In this document: positions 1 through 61,562 of the stretch, one piece after another
Numbering within the stretch: position 1 is the stretch's first letter
Layout of the letters: every line of letters begins with the position of its first letter
Assembly (NCBI GenBank): GCA_017506865.1
Contig: JAFCMP010000030.1
Span: 1-64,000, forward strand
Direction: 5' to 3'
From: Tribonema minus
Lineage: Eukaryota; Sar; Xanthophyceae; Tribonematales; Tribonemataceae
DNA length: 64,000 bases
Program-made: the position numbers and the translations under genes
Notes under the pieces: generated by a model
Databases searched by the model: none
The model's input: only the letters and a program-made list of their open reading frames with translations
Told to the model about the DNA's origin: nothing

Positions 1-147
1 CTAACCCTAAACCCTAACCCTAACCTAACCCTAACCCTAACCCTAACCCTAACCCTAACCCTAACCCTAACCCTAACTAACCTAACCCTAACCCTAACCC
101 TAACCCTAACCCTAACCCTAACCCTAACCCTAACCCTAACCCTAACC

Positions 148-188
<41 letters not shown>

Positions 189-290
189 CCCTAACCCTAA
201 CCCTAACCCTAACCCTAACCCTAACCCTAACCCTAACCCTAACCCTAACCCTAACCCTAACCCTAACCCTAACCCTAACCCCCCCTAACC

Positions 291-331
<41 letters not shown>

Positions 332-411
332 CCCTAACCCTAACCCTAACCCTAACCCTAACCCTAACCCTAACCCTAACCCTAACCCTAACCCTAACCC
401 TAACCCTAACC

Positions 412-452
<41 letters not shown>

Positions 453-472
453 CCCTAACCCTAACCCTAACC

Positions 473-551
<79 letters not shown>

Positions 552-658
552 CCCTAACCCTAACCTAACCCTAACCCTAACCCCTAACCCCTAACCCTTA
601 ACCCTAATCCTAACCCCTAACCCTAACCCTAACCCTAACCCTAACCCCTAACCCTAAG
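1..658. repeat. Telomere, CCCTAA array
   Basis: Almost uninterrupted CCCTAA units run from the first base to about 658, so the window begins at a chromosome tip with the C-rich strand on top (TTAGGG on the 3'-ending strand). Variant units are scattered through it (CCTAA, CCCTAAA, a C-run near 280) and become more frequent after about 560 (CCCCTAA, CCCTTAA, CCTAATCC), which is the usual decay at the inner edge of a telomere. Unique sequence begins at about 659. Confidence 0.98.
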
Positions 659-2361
659 GTGCATATACCCCTTCGTCAACCCATTCCAGTCACACAAGTA
701 CGCAACAACAAAAAATATGCCGTCATCAGCACATTTGCGCAAAGCATGCATGCTGTGGCATTGTGACGCAACAAGCAAGAGGCATTGTCAAAGCCACTAC
801 CTTCACAAAGTGTAAAAAGACACATCTATTCCGGTTTGTGCTGAGCCGACAAATGTTGCTGTGGCAAGAGCAGGATTCGCATATGGCGCGGAACACAACT
901 GCAACAGCTGCAGGCAGCTCCCATTCACACCAGTGCATACATGGAAGACGCACATGTGAAACAGGCTCCGAAGCTCAGCCACCGCTGCTTGTGCACCCTC
1001 ATTTGCCTGGAACTCCCAGGTCAGTGGATCCGTGGCTTCTACAGCTGTGCGACAGAGCGGGTGGTGATACAGCAGCTGGATGACCGCTATGAGCGGACAC
1101 AGCGTAGCCGCCGTGTTGTTCTTCAAACCAATGTACCACGTCCGTTGCGCCACCTGTCGATTGGTAGGTTGGGATTGGGTTGGTGTGAGACGAGGTAAAT
1201 TGTGAGCACCATTCTGATGTCACACGGCACACCGTGAAGCGCTCCCTGCAAGCATACAGGAGCGACTAGAGATGAGCACTGCCCCCAGTTGAATGTAGAC
1301 GGGCACAGTGTAGTACACGTAGCAACTACTAGTAGCTTGCGAAAGGCATATACTGCATGAGTGGCGGAAAGTTGCAGTCTGCTGTTGAGACATGCAGAGA
1401 AGAAAGTGACCCAACTCTGGTTGACGCCGCTGAAGCACCATGCCTGATCCGCGAGTCTAGTCTAGGGTTGTGGTCAGGATCTATGGCTTGTCAATATGCT
1501 TGTCGTCGACGGTACTCGTGAGACACTTGCATGATAGTTCAAGATGTGTAATGAGGCACCCCCAGGTTTATTCAACTCTCGGGCTGCTTGCCAGGCGCAG
1601 TGCATTCATGAACGCACTACAGAATGGTTGCTGAGATAAGGCATGGGGTTGGTGATTGATCGCTGCAATCGAAGCAGTACATGGGTGGACAATGATACCC
1701 AGTTCGAAACCACCTGGTCCACGCAGACTAAGACTAAGCCTGATTGATACAATCCTACCCCTAAATGTGGAAGTCCGACAGCAACTGCTTTTGAAATCAG
1801 ACACGCCATATGTTGAAGAAGGATTCAACGTTTCAGGGTGTACTTTAAGTCAGCAGTTTCTGTGTTGCTGGTTTCTGTCGTGCTGCTGGCAAAGAGGTAG
1901 ACTTGCTGTTGGCAACGGCACCTGCTTCAAACAGGTGCACAGCCGCTACTGACATGAACATACACAGCAGCGCCTGAAGTCATAACGCAAACGGCGGGCA
2001 CAGACGGTCGTCAAACAAGTCTCCGCAATGAACTCAACGCTAGCAGCGGCATTACGGCAACGACCAAGTTGTAACCTCCTTATGTGCGGTGCTGCGATGG
2101 TGCGTAAAAGCGTTGTCACATACTGAATTCCAACACTGACCATGGCATGTTGGAAACATCCTGACTGGATTTCTAATCGTGACCCCACCCCTGCAGATGC
2201 CAGCGCGTCTTCAAGTCGGTGCATCTATGAGTACTCGAGCATTGTGCAGGCGAAAATGATGCTACAAGAGGAGGACAGGTACGCTGGTGTACGCATGTTT
2301 CTAGCTCCGGTCACGGTGTCATGATTATATGATGTAACTGTCAGGGACTGCACCTTACCTC
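659..2361. other. Subtelomeric spacer, no recognised gene
   Basis: There are only short overlapping reading frames on both strands, none with a recognisable family, a good start or supporting splice sites. A minus-strand frame at 1946-2224 could be a downstream exon of the acidic exon at 2362-2604, but I cannot join the two convincingly. No repeats were noticed beyond low-level simple sequence. Confidence 0.5.
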
Positions 2362-2604
2362 GTTGTCCTGCCCCTCTTCACCACGCTCCTCCTCATCGTC
2401 TGAATCGGCGGCATCACTGTCCTGCCCCTCTTCTGAATCATCAAGCTCCTCATTGTCCTGCCCCTCTTCACCAAGCTCCCCCTCTTCACCAAGCTCCCCC
2501 TCATCGTCTGAACCGGCGCCGTCATCATCTGAACTCGCTCCATCTGAGCCAGTCTCGCTCCCTGAGGCCTCCTCAATCACATAGTCCGAATCCGCAGAGC
2601 TCAT
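2362..2604 (-). CDS. Possible first exon of an acidic low-complexity protein
   Basis: A minus-strand frame starts at an ATG (2604-2602) and encodes about 81 residues that are nearly all Glu, Asp, Ser and Gly. It contains near-repeats of EEGELG and EEGQDNE. The frame meets a strong splice-donor sequence (GAG then GTAAGG) just below 2362, so it is more likely a first coding exon than a complete gene; the remaining codons to the stop at 2341 would be intron. Acidic serine-rich tails of this kind occur in many nuclear proteins such as histone chaperones, but composition alone gives no function. The next exon, which would lie towards the telomere, was not identified. The opposite strand is an equally open serine/proline-rich frame and is treated as a shadow. 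Confidence 0.35.
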
Positions 2605-4129
2605 GACGCCTAACCAGCTGCACTACCGGCGCTGTTCCCGTCTGACAGCTATGGGCACTGCATAACCCCTTCCCACAGGCTGTCTGGCGGTTTAAAGCTG
2701 GTGTGAGTCACAAAGGAGTTCATCACGATTGTCAGCAAAAGGAAGTCATGCAGTGCACTACAAAATGAGAAGAGCCGCCATCGTTGATGTAAAACATCAT
2801 GTTGCAGTATTGGTGTTGGGACACCGGTGTGTCAAGCTGCATGCATCTGTGTACCAGGCTACTGGAGCTAGTTTAACTTACACTTGAATCGTTTAACTTG
2901 CACCTGAAGGCATCTCTGTACACGCAGACATTGATGCTGCACCCTTAACGTTATACAGCAGAATACACGGTGGCGGTGACTAGTTAAATGTTGATCCATT
3001 ACCAGTGTCTCACTCAGGAGCTGGTAATGCTCCAATTGGAACCAACATCCAGGTGCAAGCTGTACATGGTTCAAAGACCACGTATGGCAAATTACACAAT
3101 CCTTCGATTGACACACTGATGCCGTAAATGAGTTCAGATATACTGTCAAGGGCAACATAGCAATCCTGCACAGCGTATGCTGTGAACTGAGTGAATGCAC
3201 CTGGCTCACGCACAGAAAGCAGCCGCATCGCGGGCCCGAAGCACCACGTTCGCAAATTGATCGCACAAGTGCACGACGCTGACGACGTCACATCAGTTCT
3301 CTGAGTTGAAATGTACCACTGGCTTCATGTAGTACTTTACGACCAGCCGCTGTTGCGCGCAGCTTGAACCACGGGCAGCAGAACCACAGCACATACGAAC
3401 GACAACTTTGCGAGCTGGCACGCGCTGCAGGGCTCGTGAGAGCTGGCCGCTCAGCGAATCATGGGCCATAGCAGCGGCAGCACTTATACACGAATGCTCG
3501 CGATGCAGGAACGAGCGGTATATAGCCTATATATGTACATGCCGTGGGCTCTGCTTGCGAAAACACAAAATCATGCAGCACCAGGCCTTCTCCATCAACA
3601 AAGCACATCGTACATGTTGCCGCGAGGGCAGGCCATCGTCATAGCGACTGCATGTGCACGTACCAAAGTACTTGGCGAATCAAACAACTGCCTGCCCAAG
3701 CGGATGGCTTTTTGTTTGCTCGTGCTGCCAAGCTCAGGAGCGCATTTTCAAGTAATGCATTGCAGCACGTGAGGGCGAGAAGAACAGGCTGAACAGGTAT
3801 ACATGGAGGAAACTAAACGTCGTATTTCAATGGTTTCTGGCACCTGGTGGGCGCTGGTGCCCGCACGAGCTATCGCCATCACCCCAGCTCCTGCGATTTT
3901 GTGCCAACACCTTCAGAGATGTGGAGGCCGACGCTGATCACGCGCGCGCAATGCACCTGTAGGCAGCAGCAGCACCTCCTTCCTGAGCACCTTCGCAACG
4001 CTCCCAAGGGCCGCCTCTGTGCGTTGTGTATCAAAGCAGCCTACCACACGCGATTTTTTAATGCTGCGGCACCGCTCAGCAAAGCTGGTTTGCTCCCAAC
4101 CCCTCGGCGCCAGGCTCCGAAGGCCTATA
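2605..4129. other. Subtelomeric spacer, no recognised gene
   Basis: Several frames of 70-130 codons overlap on both strands but none looks like a known protein, and none has a consistent start plus splice sites. The last part (about 3850-4129) leads directly into the telomere-like tract at 4130. Confidence 0.5.
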
Positions 4130-4151
4130 CTAACCCTAACCCTAACCCTAA
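4130..4151 (+). repeat. Interstitial telomeric tract at retroelement junction
   Basis: Three and a half perfect CCCTAA units lie in the same orientation as the terminal telomere and directly abut the broken 5' end of the retroelement copy that follows. The arrangement is what results if telomerase caps a truncated retroelement at a chromosome end. Confidence 0.9.
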
Positions 4152-4784
4152 GGGCCGCCGGGGAGTCGCAGGATGGACATCGTGCTGCCTGCCGACGCCT
4201 TCCCGGTGACCGGCTACGACGACCCGACACGCCACCTACCGCTCATGGTGGACGTTACCTGCTTCGAGGCACAGGTGGCGTCGCGGGCAGCGAAGACTGC
4301 AGCAGACCCCGAGCGATGCTGCCGCGACCAAGAGGCCGCCAAAACTACCCACTATTCTGGTCATTATGATCAGAATTGCTACAAACTTGCCACTTTGGCA
4401 ATAGGGTCATTTGGCAGCATCGGGGAGCAGGGGCGGAAGCTACTGGAGGCTGTGGCGACGGAGTATGCCAGCAGGATGTCAGTGCCCGGAGGAGCGCGCC
4501 CTAAAGCTCTCAAGGGCATCGCCCTGGCGCGCTTACGCTCGGCACTGTCGGCAGCGCTCCACATGGCGTACTCTGGCCGTGTCATGACACACATGGCAGA
4601 ATCCAGGGGGGGGGGGCACCTGGAGGAGGACGTAGGGGAGGACCCCGAGATGCCATTTGGCGGCGGCGGCGTTTGAGTGGTTGTCGTTGCGACACTTTCA
4701 GACTGTCATACGACATGTAGATTCCTTACAGCTAGATGCCAATCATCTGGGCTTTTTCGCGCCCTGAGCGAGAATTAATAAAAA
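4152..4784 (+). mobile_element. 5'-truncated non-LTR retroelement (endonuclease end)
   Basis: This is the last part of a retroelement reading frame plus its 3' untranslated tail. The readable frame (4173-4676) encodes the restriction-like endonuclease region: an R-M-D motif, V-D-V-T, then K-T-T-H-Y, followed by a helical C-terminus and a Gly-rich end. It lacks the upstream zinc-finger segment present in the copy at 60540-61562. The two copies differ by about five substitutions over some 630 bp, so one is a recent duplicate or both are recent insertions. The tail ends in an AT-rich terminus with an A-run at about 4784. The 5' break joins telomeric repeats. Confidence 0.85.
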
Positions 4785-4806
4785 TTTTAAAGTACATGAC
4801 ATTCAA

Positions 4807-4860
4807 GTTAGATGCCATTCATCGGGGCTCTTTTGCGCCCTGAGCGAGAATTAATAAAAA
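4807..4860 (+). mobile_element. Second truncated copy of the retroelement 3' tail
   Basis: About 54 bp matching the final part of the retroelement tail (GATGCC, CATC, then GCGCCCTGAGCGAGAAT and an A-run) lies 22 bp downstream of the first copy and in the same orientation. It is an extremely short 5'-truncated insertion. Confidence 0.8.
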
Positions 4861-5471
4861 CTACATAGCATACACTCAGTGGTTGTCCTTCAAGGGAGCC
4901 GTTGCATGCAGTCGCGTGGCCTGGATGAAGCATCCGGTTTGATACTTCTATGAAATTCTGAAATACCTGCGCCAATCATAACTCTTCCAATTAAGATCTT
5001 CCTGCTTGTGATGCACATGCCGCCACGCACCTTTGCCAAGTGCAGCACCGCCGCAGCGATACTTGTCACATGGTCTTTCAGCTCGCGCAGCGCTCCCAGG
5101 CTCGAGCTTGACTTGGTGTTGTCGCTTTCACCATCTTCAACTCGATCTCCTGGCGCTTGACGACAGGCTCTCCACGCAGTGACGGGCACGCGTTCGAACA
5201 GCCCGTCGGTTTCAGACATGTTGAATACGCCATGGCACGGGTGTCCAGCATGCTGCCCTTGTAAGCGCACGGCAGCTGTGCGTGATAGCCGACTTGGCGG
5301 CCACAGGTTCTGAGCACTGATGGCTTGAAAGCCGTTCCCCAGGGCTGGTCATGGAACACTATGTCCGGCTGCGCAGGCAAGTTGAGGAACACATCGTGCA
5401 ACACATGCTGTGATGTAGTGTGCTCATGTCCCACATGCAAGTACATAGAGACACTTTTAAGGTGTTCACAA
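4861..5471. other. Spacer with an unassigned minus-strand frame
   Basis: Two overlapping minus-strand frames (4890-5270 and 5078-5446) are open for 120-126 codons. One contains a helical, Leu/Ala-rich stretch and meets a GTGCGT donor-like site near 5034. Neither resembles a family I know. They could be decayed retroelement sequence, given what flanks them. Confidence 0.35.
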
Positions 5472-5599: not shown

Positions 5600-5795
5600 T
5601 ACTTTCCATGTCGCTGGCGCGGGAGTTGGCGGAGCGCGTCATGGCGTACACACGCGGAGCGCGAATGCTGGGCTGTGTTGCAGCGCCGGTATCCAAGCTC
5701 CTAGGACACAGCGCAGACTAGGCTGCTGCATTGACGCAAGCTTTTCGATTGCATAGGCAACCCGGCCTCCCTTGGGCCTTTATAAATACAAGTCC
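5600..5795 (+). mobile_element. Retroelement-like fragment, second family
   Basis: This matches, with perhaps 20-25% differences, a segment at about 41145-41345. On the plus strand both encode a short peptide with AERVMAYT / AERIMAYT followed by GARMLG, reminiscent of the ALHMAYSGRVM segment near the end of the retroelement frame. Both end in a shared CCGGCCTCCCTTGGG block. It looks like the end of a related, older element. Which strand was coding is not certain. Confidence 0.5.
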
Positions 5796-7365
5796 ATACG
5801 TAATTTCCAGCACAAGGGAGCAAGTTTATGCCGCCTGGCTCTAATGCAGCGTATGCAGTGCGCGTGGGGTCCAAACATGCTGTGAGCTGGTTCTCAAGCT
5901 TGCCTTATGTTTGCTTTATGATACATAGGTAAGAACCATGTGTACATGTTGCTTCGAAATGACTCAGGTAAGAACCATGTGTACATGTTGCTTCGACATG
6001 ACTCACGGCAGTGGAGCCAGCAGCATATGTATTTGAGCTGCACAACCGGTTGCTCGAATGAGTTGTCGTGGGTACAGGCCGTTTGAGAGCCCATCAAGGA
6101 GTTGAGCAATAAGGTTCTGACACAAGCTGGACCTGAGCAAATGCTCGTTTAAGCTTCAAGTTGGCAGTTCTTCTCATGACATACGAAGTAGTTGATCAGT
6201 TTGCACGTGTCGAGAGGATGTCATAAAACATATGGGACTGGGAAGTACATATGGGTTGCATTGGGCATCTGTCTAAGGTGTCCGCTGAATGCCGCAAAAC
6301 TCCATCTGCATGCGCTGGCATTCAAAACTGTCTAAGGCGCCGCTGCTGGTGTCATTGGCTGCGCAAATTCTGCCAGATTATCAAAGAGCACAAAACGAAG
6401 TGATGAAGAGCTGACACACGTGAGCGCTTCCTAGACCACAAGTAGTAAAAATGTGCACCTCAACTTTGACAGTATGGCTGGCTGGCTGTCCGCTTTGTCA
6501 ATCCTGTAGCTACTTTGTGAAGTAGTTGACTCGCCAAGTGCTTGGTACCTTGTGGTTTTGATTAGCATCCACACTGCTGCTGCTGCTGCAATGGCCCAAA
6601 AATCTCAGTCTTGAGAGCCCTGCCGGGCGTGCCAGCTTGCAATATTGGCAAACACATGTCAATCTGCTGGATAGAGGCTGAGTGCAACACTTGCTGGTAC
6701 CAAACGACCCAACACCATGTACATGAAGCCATCTCATGGCAACACACAAAAGTCTGCCTATCAAGCCCATTTCTTTCTAAAGGGTATACCATAGCTCTGA
6801 ATGAACATGCGTTATCAACAGCACAAGCGTACAACAAAAGGGTGCGATGGCATGAGCCACTGCCAGAATGTGTGCGTGACACGGCAGAAAGGAAGCAGGA
6901 TATTCATTACAAAGGATTTTGCGGAAAGCATGAATCTGATCACTGGCCCCTTCGAATGTTGAGGTGCTCAGTGCACTGGTGTCCTTTCTCTCACCGCCTA
7001 TTGGTCTGATGGTGTGTTGGCAGCTCAGCTTCATACAAATTACTCAGGTGCTGCCTGGAAAGCGCAGTCGGCAACAGCTAAGAGCAGGACAGGCAAAAGC
7101 AGCATCTGCGGATACCACTATGCAGCATAGGTGTAGGACAGGCCTTTACGCCTGCCATCAACAGTGCAACTGTGCATGCCCTCTCTGCCGCGCCTGCGTG
7201 CGTTTGCTCTACTTGGCATAGGTGTGTGCGCAAGCTGTGCGTCCCGCAATGAAATGGCTGCGGCTTCCCTCAAATCACCCTCAGCTCAGATTGGCAGCAC
7301 CTGGCAGATCAGCCTTGAGGGTGGACGCTACTGCGGAGCTGAGCTGTAAAGCAGGTGGCACCAAA
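5796..7365. other. Spacer downstream of G6PD
   Basis: This is the 3' flank of the minus-strand G6PD gene. It holds a 39-bp tandem duplication (about 5927-6004) and otherwise only short overlapping frames without recognisable products. Confidence 0.5.
5927..6004. repeat. 39-bp tandem duplication
   Basis: Two adjacent copies begin AGGTAAGAACCATGTG and run to a GACTCA end. They differ at one or two positions. They contain a GTAAG donor-like motif, but no gene was found around them. Confidence 0.85.
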
Positions 7366-60539: not shown

Positions 60540-61562
60540 AATAAGGTGGAGGCGGACCTGCAACAGCTGCCGCAGGGCACGCAACGCACGCAAGCACTTG
60601 CTCGATTCCGGTCGCAGCGCCACATGCACTCGATCGGCATGGCATTCCTCAACGAGCCCATGTACTCCACAACGGCTTCGTTCGATGGCCTATCCTGGCA
60701 GCTGGCCGTCAAACGCGCCATCGGAGTAGAGGAGCAGACGGCAGGCTGCAAGCTGTGCGGGAAGTCGCCGGGCGGCACCCTGCATGCACGGCTGTGTCAA
60801 GCGCCACGCGTCAAGGCGCACGACACCATCGTCCACAATAGCGTCAAGAGGGCCACGCAGCGCATCCTGCGGCAATACCTCAAAACGGGACTGGTGGACG
60901 AGGACTACACGCCGTTTCTGGGGTCCGCCGGGCCGCCGGGGAGTCGCAGGATGGACATCGTGCTGCCTGCCGACGCCTTCCCGGTGACCGGCTACGACGA
61001 CCCGACACGCCACCTACCGCTCATGGTGGACGTTACCTGCTTCGAGGCACAGGTGGCGTCGCGGGCGGCGAAGACTGCAGCAGACCCCGAGCGATGCTGC
61101 CGCGACCAAGAGGCCGCCAAGACTACCCACTATTCTGGTCATTATGATCAGAATTGCTACAAACTTGCCACTTTGGCAATAGGGTCATTTGGCAGCATCG
61201 GGGAGCAGGGGCGGAAGCTGCTGGAGGCTGTGGCGACGGAGTATGCCAGCAGGATGTCAGTGCCCGGAGGAGCGCGCCCTGAAGCTCTCAAGGGCATCGC
61301 CCTGGCGCGCTTACGCTCGGCACTGTCGGCAGCGCTCCACATGGCGTACTCTGGCCGTGTCATGACACACATGGCAGAATCCAGGGGGGGGGGGCACATG
61401 GAGGAGGACGTAGGGGAGGACCCCGAGATGCCATTTGGCGGCGGCGGCGTTTGAGTGGTTGTCGTTGCGACACTTTCAGACTGTCATACGACATGTAGAT
61501 TCCTTACAGCTAGATGCCAATCATCTGGGCTTTTTCGCGCCCTGAGCGAGAATTAATAAAAA
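60540..61562 (+). mobile_element. 5'-truncated non-LTR retroelement with zinc finger and endonuclease
   Basis: An open frame from the truncation point (stop at 60537, first GTG at 60546, no ATG start) to a TGA at 61454 encodes about 302 residues. A C-x2-C-x8-H-x3-C knuckle (68, 71, 80, 84) is followed by a restriction-like endonuclease signature: R135-M-D137, V161-D162-V-T, K192-T-T-H-Y196. This order of CCHC then PD-(D/E)XK nuclease is that of the C-terminus of R2/CRE/NeSL-type elements. The reverse transcriptase part is missing, so this is a dead 5'-truncated copy. The tail to about 61562 ends in AATTAATAAAAA and is nearly identical to the subtelomeric copy. Confidence 0.85.

What the first reader, a model, noticed from the sequence alone, without database searches (positions are those of the whole stretch)
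4130..4784. Fossil chromosome end: truncated retroelement capped by telomeric repeats
The retroelement's broken 5' end joins directly to CCCTAA repeats that point the same way as the real telomere 3.5 kb away. The 5' end faces the tip and the oligo-A tail faces inwards. This is the geometry of elements added at chromosome ends and then capped by telomerase, as described for telomeric HeT-A/TART (flies), Zepp (Chlorella) and rotifer Athena elements. That this element helps maintain ends here is an inference.
Basis: partly seen in the sequence, partly recalled or inferred. Interest (0 to 1): 0.85.

Follow-up and report, generated by a model that had tools for sequence, protein, structure and literature searches.

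The report
Telomere-attached repeat beside a broken retroelement

Summary
In detail: a 22-bp CTAA(CCCTAA)3 tract joins the broken 5' end of a LINE (4152-4784), 3.47 kb inside a real 657-bp telomere. The proposed actor is wrong. The LINE is dispersed (1,652 exact copies of its 3' end), targets GTAC, and none of 61 other 5' breaks examined is telomere-capped.

The tract belongs to the outer neighbour. Window 658-4129 is a truncated copy of a repeat (element A, 3.8-3.9 kb complete). Its inner end occurs nine times genome-wide (up to 3 mismatches), 1.1-38.8 kb from contig ends. Nine of nine point tip-outward, carry a (CCCTAA)n stub of 8-47 bp in one phase, and meet different inner sequence (here a broken LINE, in C68 an interrupted LSU rRNA gene). 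Three copies are cut at different points and joined straight to telomere.

Best reading: a broken arm was healed with telomere repeats and element A was added outside later. This is the geometry of MoTeR/FoTeR/Athena elements or yeast Y' units. No reverse transcriptase was found in element A, so membership is not established. Interstitial tracts are common here (46 sites on 2.45-Mb C1), so the tract alone proves little.

The parts
1..657 (+). terminal telomere, (CCCTAA)n, capping element A at its cut outer end
   Evidence: Sequence; Tandem Repeats Finder 108.7 copies of a 6-base unit
658..4129 (+). element A, copy truncated at its outer (5') end; 3,472 bp, complete copies elsewhere 3.8-3.9 kb
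   Evidence: Matches at contig ends; complete copies continue outward beyond 658 to a shared end ATCCCTAAAGGTG
4107..4133 (+). inner end of element A, CAGGCTCCGAAGGCCTATACTAA and neighbouring bases, found nine times genome-wide
   Evidence: Pattern search with up to 3 mismatches: 9 places, control 0 (window match 4111-4133)
4130..4151 (+). telomeric stub CTAA(CCCTAA)3
   Evidence: Sequence; same phase and position in 9 of 9 inner ends
4152..4784 (+). LINE copy, 5'-truncated, last 633 bp; bystander
   Evidence: 99.4% to a longer copy; dispersed family
4806..4860 (+). second, older 3' tail of the same LINE family directly inside the first
   Evidence: 91% over 55 bp

Best explanation
The CCCTAA tract at 4130-4151 is the inner border of a telomere-attached repeat unit (element A, 658-4129), not a cap that belongs to the LINE. 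Most likely order: (1) an ordinary LINE copy lay in this chromosome arm; (2) the arm lost its end by a break in the LINE and was healed with telomere repeats; (3) element A was added outside that short telomere, either by retroposition onto or into telomeric repeats, or by break-induced copying from another element-bearing end through CCCTAA homology; (4) the new end lost the outer part of element A and was capped again at 658. Shown: element A's borders, copies, orientation, stub and telomere caps, and the ordinary behaviour of the LINE. Inferred: the order of events, the healing step, and the route by which element A came.
For: Nine inner ends in the genome, nine tip-outward, 1.1-38.8 kb from contig ends. 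Each is followed by a stub of 8-47 bp starting in the same phase, then by sequence with no similarity between copies except the stubs. In C68 the inner neighbour is an LSU rRNA gene interrupted in an expansion segment. Three copies are cut at different points (658, about 2376, about 2770) and joined directly to telomeric repeats. Four outer ends share one boundary and are tip-outward. The LINE shows no telomeric caps in 61 other breaks and no end clustering.
Against: Truncation is normal for this LINE, so its break need not be a chromosome break; 18 of 61 other breaks also lack a duplication of 5 bp or more, so its absence here is weak. No empty site or allele is available. Terminal telomere was seen only at C30, C7 and C531; other contig ends were not read. 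Interstitial tracts are common. The short motif CTATACTAACCCTAA alone is not end-specific: 11 exact places include C246:651940, deep inside a contig. In C68 the unit lies 38.8 kb from the contig end and its outer edge meets unrelated sequence.
Confidence: 0.6

Rival explanations
1. Element A is a mobile unit that carries CCCTAA at its own 3' end and inserts at ordinary subterminal sites; the inner junction is an insertion site and was never a chromosome tip.
For: Fixed phase of the stub in 9 of 9 inner ends, down to 8 bp in C54:360.8 kb; sharp borders at both ends; copies not at the very tip (C68, C54) exist.
Against: Only end-near places and only one orientation, nine of nine; the continuation of the LINE or of the rRNA gene was not seen on the outer side, though little outer sequence was read.
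Confidence: 0.2
2. The tract is one of the many interstitial telomeric tracts made when breaks are repaired with telomeric repeats, and its contact with the LINE is incidental.
For: 46 places on C1; L014 shows (TTAGGG)3 inside another copy of this LINE with LINE sequence on both sides. Mammalian precedent: PMC2246262 (outline with one-sentence abstract seen).
Against: The outer neighbour is element A with its own defined end, not the rest of the LINE, and the same junction type recurs nine times.
Confidence: 0.07
3. One reading: the LINE is added at chromosome ends and capped by telomerase, like HeT-A/TART, Zepp or Athena.
For: Orientation of this single copy, 5' to the tip.
Against: 0 of 61 other breaks capped; GTAC follows the tail in 74 of 86 other copies; 43 of 61 breaks have a duplication of 5 bp or more; no end clustering.
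Confidence: 0.03
4. The junction is an assembly misjoin between a subterminal repeat and a LINE.
For: Both sides are repeats; reads were not available.
Against: Nine independent junctions of the same form on seven contigs.
Confidence: 0.05

Closest known systems
MoTeR (Magnaporthe oryzae) and FoTeR (Fusarium oxysporum) telomeric retrotransposons
   Same: 5' end toward the chromosome end, 3' end followed by a short telomeric tract, truncated copies capped by new telomere, stacking, different elements sharing a 3' border (PMC7367193 and PMC12857005, passages read)
   Different: No reverse-transcriptase or endonuclease frame found in element A; host is a stramenopile alga
Athena and other endonuclease-deficient Penelope-like elements
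   Same: Short telomeric stretch at the 3' end and 5' truncation (PMC5537684, passages read)
   Different: No RT frame found; relation untested
Yeast Y' subtelomeric units (recalled, no call)
   Same: Block between terminal telomere and an internal telomeric tract, shared by several ends
   Different: Y' encodes a helicase; none found in the element A frames scanned
HeT-A/TART, Zepp
   Same: The 5' end of the LINE faces the tip in this one copy
   Different: The LINE is dispersed, GTAC-targeted and not telomeric
Interstitial telomeric sequences from break repair
   Same: Short (CCCTAA)n tract inside a chromosome
   Different: Here the tract is the border of a defined subterminal unit

Membership tests
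MoTeR/FoTeR telomeric retrotransposons (for element A) | Confined to chromosome ends with 5' end toward the terminus | tested here: met
   9 of 9 inner ends within 38.8 kb of a contig end and tip-outward; real telomere seen at C30, C7 and C531 only
MoTeR/FoTeR telomeric retrotransposons (for element A) | 3' end followed by a short telomeric tract | tested here: met
   9 of 9, 8-47 bp
MoTeR/FoTeR telomeric retrotransposons (for element A) | Single frame with reverse transcriptase and restriction-like endonuclease (complete MoTeR1 and FoTeR; MoTeR2 shares borders with MoTeR1) | tested here: not met
   Longest frame in 658-4129 is 141 codons, shuffled mean 142.7; four element A frames, one running over the junction, gave no Pfam match at E up to 0.1; a coding partner elsewhere was not found in a truncated RVT_1 list
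Athena-type Penelope-like elements (for element A) | Penelope-type reverse transcriptase | tested here: inconclusive
   No frame in the window copy; the outer 0.3-0.4 kb of complete copies was only partly read
Yeast Y'-like units (for element A) | Spread by recombination between telomeric tracts | not testable with these tools
   Needs strain or lineage comparisons
HeT-A/TART-like end-building LINE (for 4152-4784) | Copies at chromosome ends with telomere-capped or end-facing 5' breaks | tested here: not met
   0 of 61 other breaks capped; no end clustering
Interstitial telomeric tract from break repair | Tract inserted between two halves of one formerly continuous sequence | tested here: not met
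   Outer side is element A, not the rest of the LINE; the feature is met at L014

The most novel reading that the evidence does not exclude
Element A is a retroelement of a stramenopile alga that attaches by its 3' end to bare or barely capped broken chromosome ends, bringing or copying the CCCTAA stub itself, so that it heals breaks (here in a LINE, in C68 in an rRNA gene) rather than only settling on finished telomeres.
Probability: 0.15. Interest if true: 0.75.

Novelty: new member of a known kind. Interest (0 to 1): 0.45.

Why it matters
It gives a xanthophyte alga a readable set of chromosome-end layers: telomere, end-specific unit, telomeric stub, older broken sequence. Nine such junctions in one assembly would let the two known ways of decorating telomerase-maintained ends, retroposition and recombination, be tested in a stramenopile. 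It also shows that a telomeric tract touching a transposon must be assigned to the right neighbour before it is read as telomere biology of that transposon.

Tried and rejected
LINE as telomere builder: rejected from the junction survey and the distribution. Chance contact of a LINE break with a tract: about 0.4 expected genome-wide, superseded by the nine shared junctions. Structural RNA in the window: none at Rfam gathering scores. Coding content of element A: four stop-to-stop frames (one running over the junction) gave no Pfam match; frame lengths equal mononucleotide shuffles, 49 of 100 reaching the observed length. LINE domains: no Pfam and no PDB sequence match for the 304-codon frame; its zinc-finger-like and VDVT motifs resemble restriction-like-endonuclease LINEs from recall only. 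Autonomous partner: the RVT_1 search scored 150 of 1,416 candidates and did not print all matches; no printed hit lies in the element A intervals, which does not exclude one. Short-motif search CTATACTAACCCTAA: 11 exact places and 90 with up to one mismatch (control 3); 7 of the 11 are element A or its diverged relatives, the other four (C246, C289, C501, C530) were not read, and C246 is interior.

Sample limits: the 60 LINE loci are not random: 30 are the best matches, 30 the first places (C1 and C2, of 1,652). Duplicated 3' junctions were counted once; 25 of 88 copies run off the fetched stretch and are outside the break count; the window's two tails were left out of the 61. The LINE reference covers only its last 2,133 bp. 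Several of the 23 ends on C1 are tandem tails at one place. In the end-distance test 5 of 29 copies lie on contigs under 150 kb; on the other 24 it is 2 observed against 2.3 expected within 20 kb.

It also said three element A frames were scanned; it was four.

Full report
What is there. The window is the left end of contig C30 in a genome of 158 Mb and 554 contigs. The organism is very probably Tribonema minus: the LINE protein at 60540-61451 is 98% identical to annotated proteins of that alga, and one listed protein's contig length (1,038,083) equals that of C301 here. Bases 1-657 are terminal telomere. The 22-bp tract at 4130-4151 and the LINE's break at 4152 are as described.

The LINE. 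A search with 4130-4870 gave 52 matches, 40 of 1,758 candidates scored; 39 of the 51 others start exactly at 4152. Its 26-base 3' end occurs 1,652 times exactly, control 0. I examined 60 loci: the 30 best matches (one is the window) and the first 30 places. Duplicates removed, they hold 88 3' ends, 63 with the 5' break in view; two of these are the window's own, leaving 61. None of the 61 is capped by telomeric repeats. One, L049, has a tract nearby, but 7 bp outside an intact 10-bp target duplication and 17 bp from the LINE, so it was part of the target neighbourhood. The tail is followed by GTAC in 74 of 86 other copies, and 43 of 61 breaks show a duplication of 5 bp or more. The window copy shows none, weak evidence since 18 of 61 lack one too. 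On C1 its 23 ends are uniform (KS p = 0.56); of 29 copies with known contig length 7 lie within 20 kb of an end, 6.4 expected.

The other side of the tract. Window 2600-4129 matches eight other places and 658-2599 extends several of them. Beyond the inner end each copy shows GGCCTATA (GGCCTGTA in C43), then CTAACC..., a stub of about 8 to 47 bp, and then sequence without similarity between copies apart from the stubs. A genome-wide pattern search with up to 3 mismatches gives nine inner ends: C7, C30, C73, C54 (three), C68, C531 and C43. They lie 1.1 to 38.8 kb from contig ends and all face the tip. In C68 the inner neighbour is LSU rRNA, aligned with confidence up to an expansion segment and then interrupted by a 124-bp tandem copy, a second stub and the first stub. 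In the window it is the LINE.

The outer end. Complete copies in C54, C73 and C43, and the outer part of one in C524, share the boundary ATCCCTAAAGGTG; a pattern search finds these four ends, all tip-outward. The window copy is cut at 658, the C531 copy near 2376 and the C7 copy near 2770, each joined directly to telomeric repeats. The C68 copy is cut near 3074 and joined to unrelated sequence. The relative at C54:360.8 kb shares only 3285-4129 at 91%; the outermost C54 copy shares only its last 74 bp. Two further diverged inner ends (77-78%) lie at C54:365.7 kb and C524:8.6 kb, so the right end of C54 carries four in a stack.

How it probably works. A chromosome whose sequence stops inside a LINE or an rRNA gene and is followed by a few telomere repeats looks like a healed break. 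An end-specific unit outside it, always in the same direction, is what either telomere-targeted retroposition or copying from another end through CCCTAA homology would leave. I cannot separate these two. Element A has no long frame, four of its frames gave no Pfam match, and an incomplete RVT_1 list shows none beside it. Shared borders with different bodies lean slightly toward an element family; truncations capped by telomere fit erosion and healing under either view.

Against a single-tract argument. Interstitial telomeric tracts are common here: 46 places on C1, 21 in one orientation and 25 in the other, extrapolating to about 3,000. One of 15 distinct sites inspected is (TTAGGG)3 inside another copy of this LINE, with LINE on both sides (L014). 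The 15-base motif CTATACTAACCCTAA by itself also occurs in the interior of C246. The tract is informative because of the nine matching long borders.

Comparison. [quoted passage not shown] FoTeRs have 5' toward the terminus and 3' ends followed by 3-7 TAACCC (PMC12857005, passages). Most Athena copies carry a short telomeric stretch at their 3' end (PMC5537684, passages; PMC7943196, passages). Element A matches this geometry but fails the coding test, so I call it a unit that works like these, not a member. Literature on Tribonema chromosome ends: a search for Tribonema minus with subtelomer found one paper, on Ectocarpus, whose passages do not describe this; two other searches listed no paper whose title or abstract start describes it; PMC13236599, which names the alga, was not opened.

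Noticed in passing
L014 (C1:271501): (TTAGGG)3 sits inside another copy of the same LINE with LINE sequence on both sides, an interior insertion of telomeric repeats.
   Followed up: partly
L096 (C68:1410400-1411220): LSU rRNA gene interrupted in an expansion segment by a 124-bp tandem copy that includes a second telomeric stub, then element A.
   Followed up: partly
L032-L036, L063, L067, L080, L084: The LINE often has several truncated tails at one GTAC site with the target duplication repeated between them, as if it inserted repeatedly at the same spot.
   Followed up: partly
C524:11185-22546: Five matches to a 196-bp dispersed repeat at a regular 2.79-kb spacing near a contig end, suggesting a subterminal tandem array.
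   Followed up: no
window 5607-5802: 196-bp repeat with many copies at 97-99% (40 of 1,516 candidates scored), SINE-like in size.
   Followed up: no
window 17292, 26155, 48975: Three more short telomeric tracts, in the TTAGGG orientation, opposite to the terminal telomere.
   Followed up: no
window 60541-61562: A longer copy of the same LINE (1,022 bp, 99.5%), followed by GTAC.
   Followed up: partly
window 2341-2622: Minus-strand frame inside element A with a very acidic low-complexity translation and an 18-bp tandem repeat at 2461-2502.
   Followed up: no
C412:413635-414020: A piece of element A (window 992-1145) occurs twice in inverted orientation at 77% identity.
   Followed up: no
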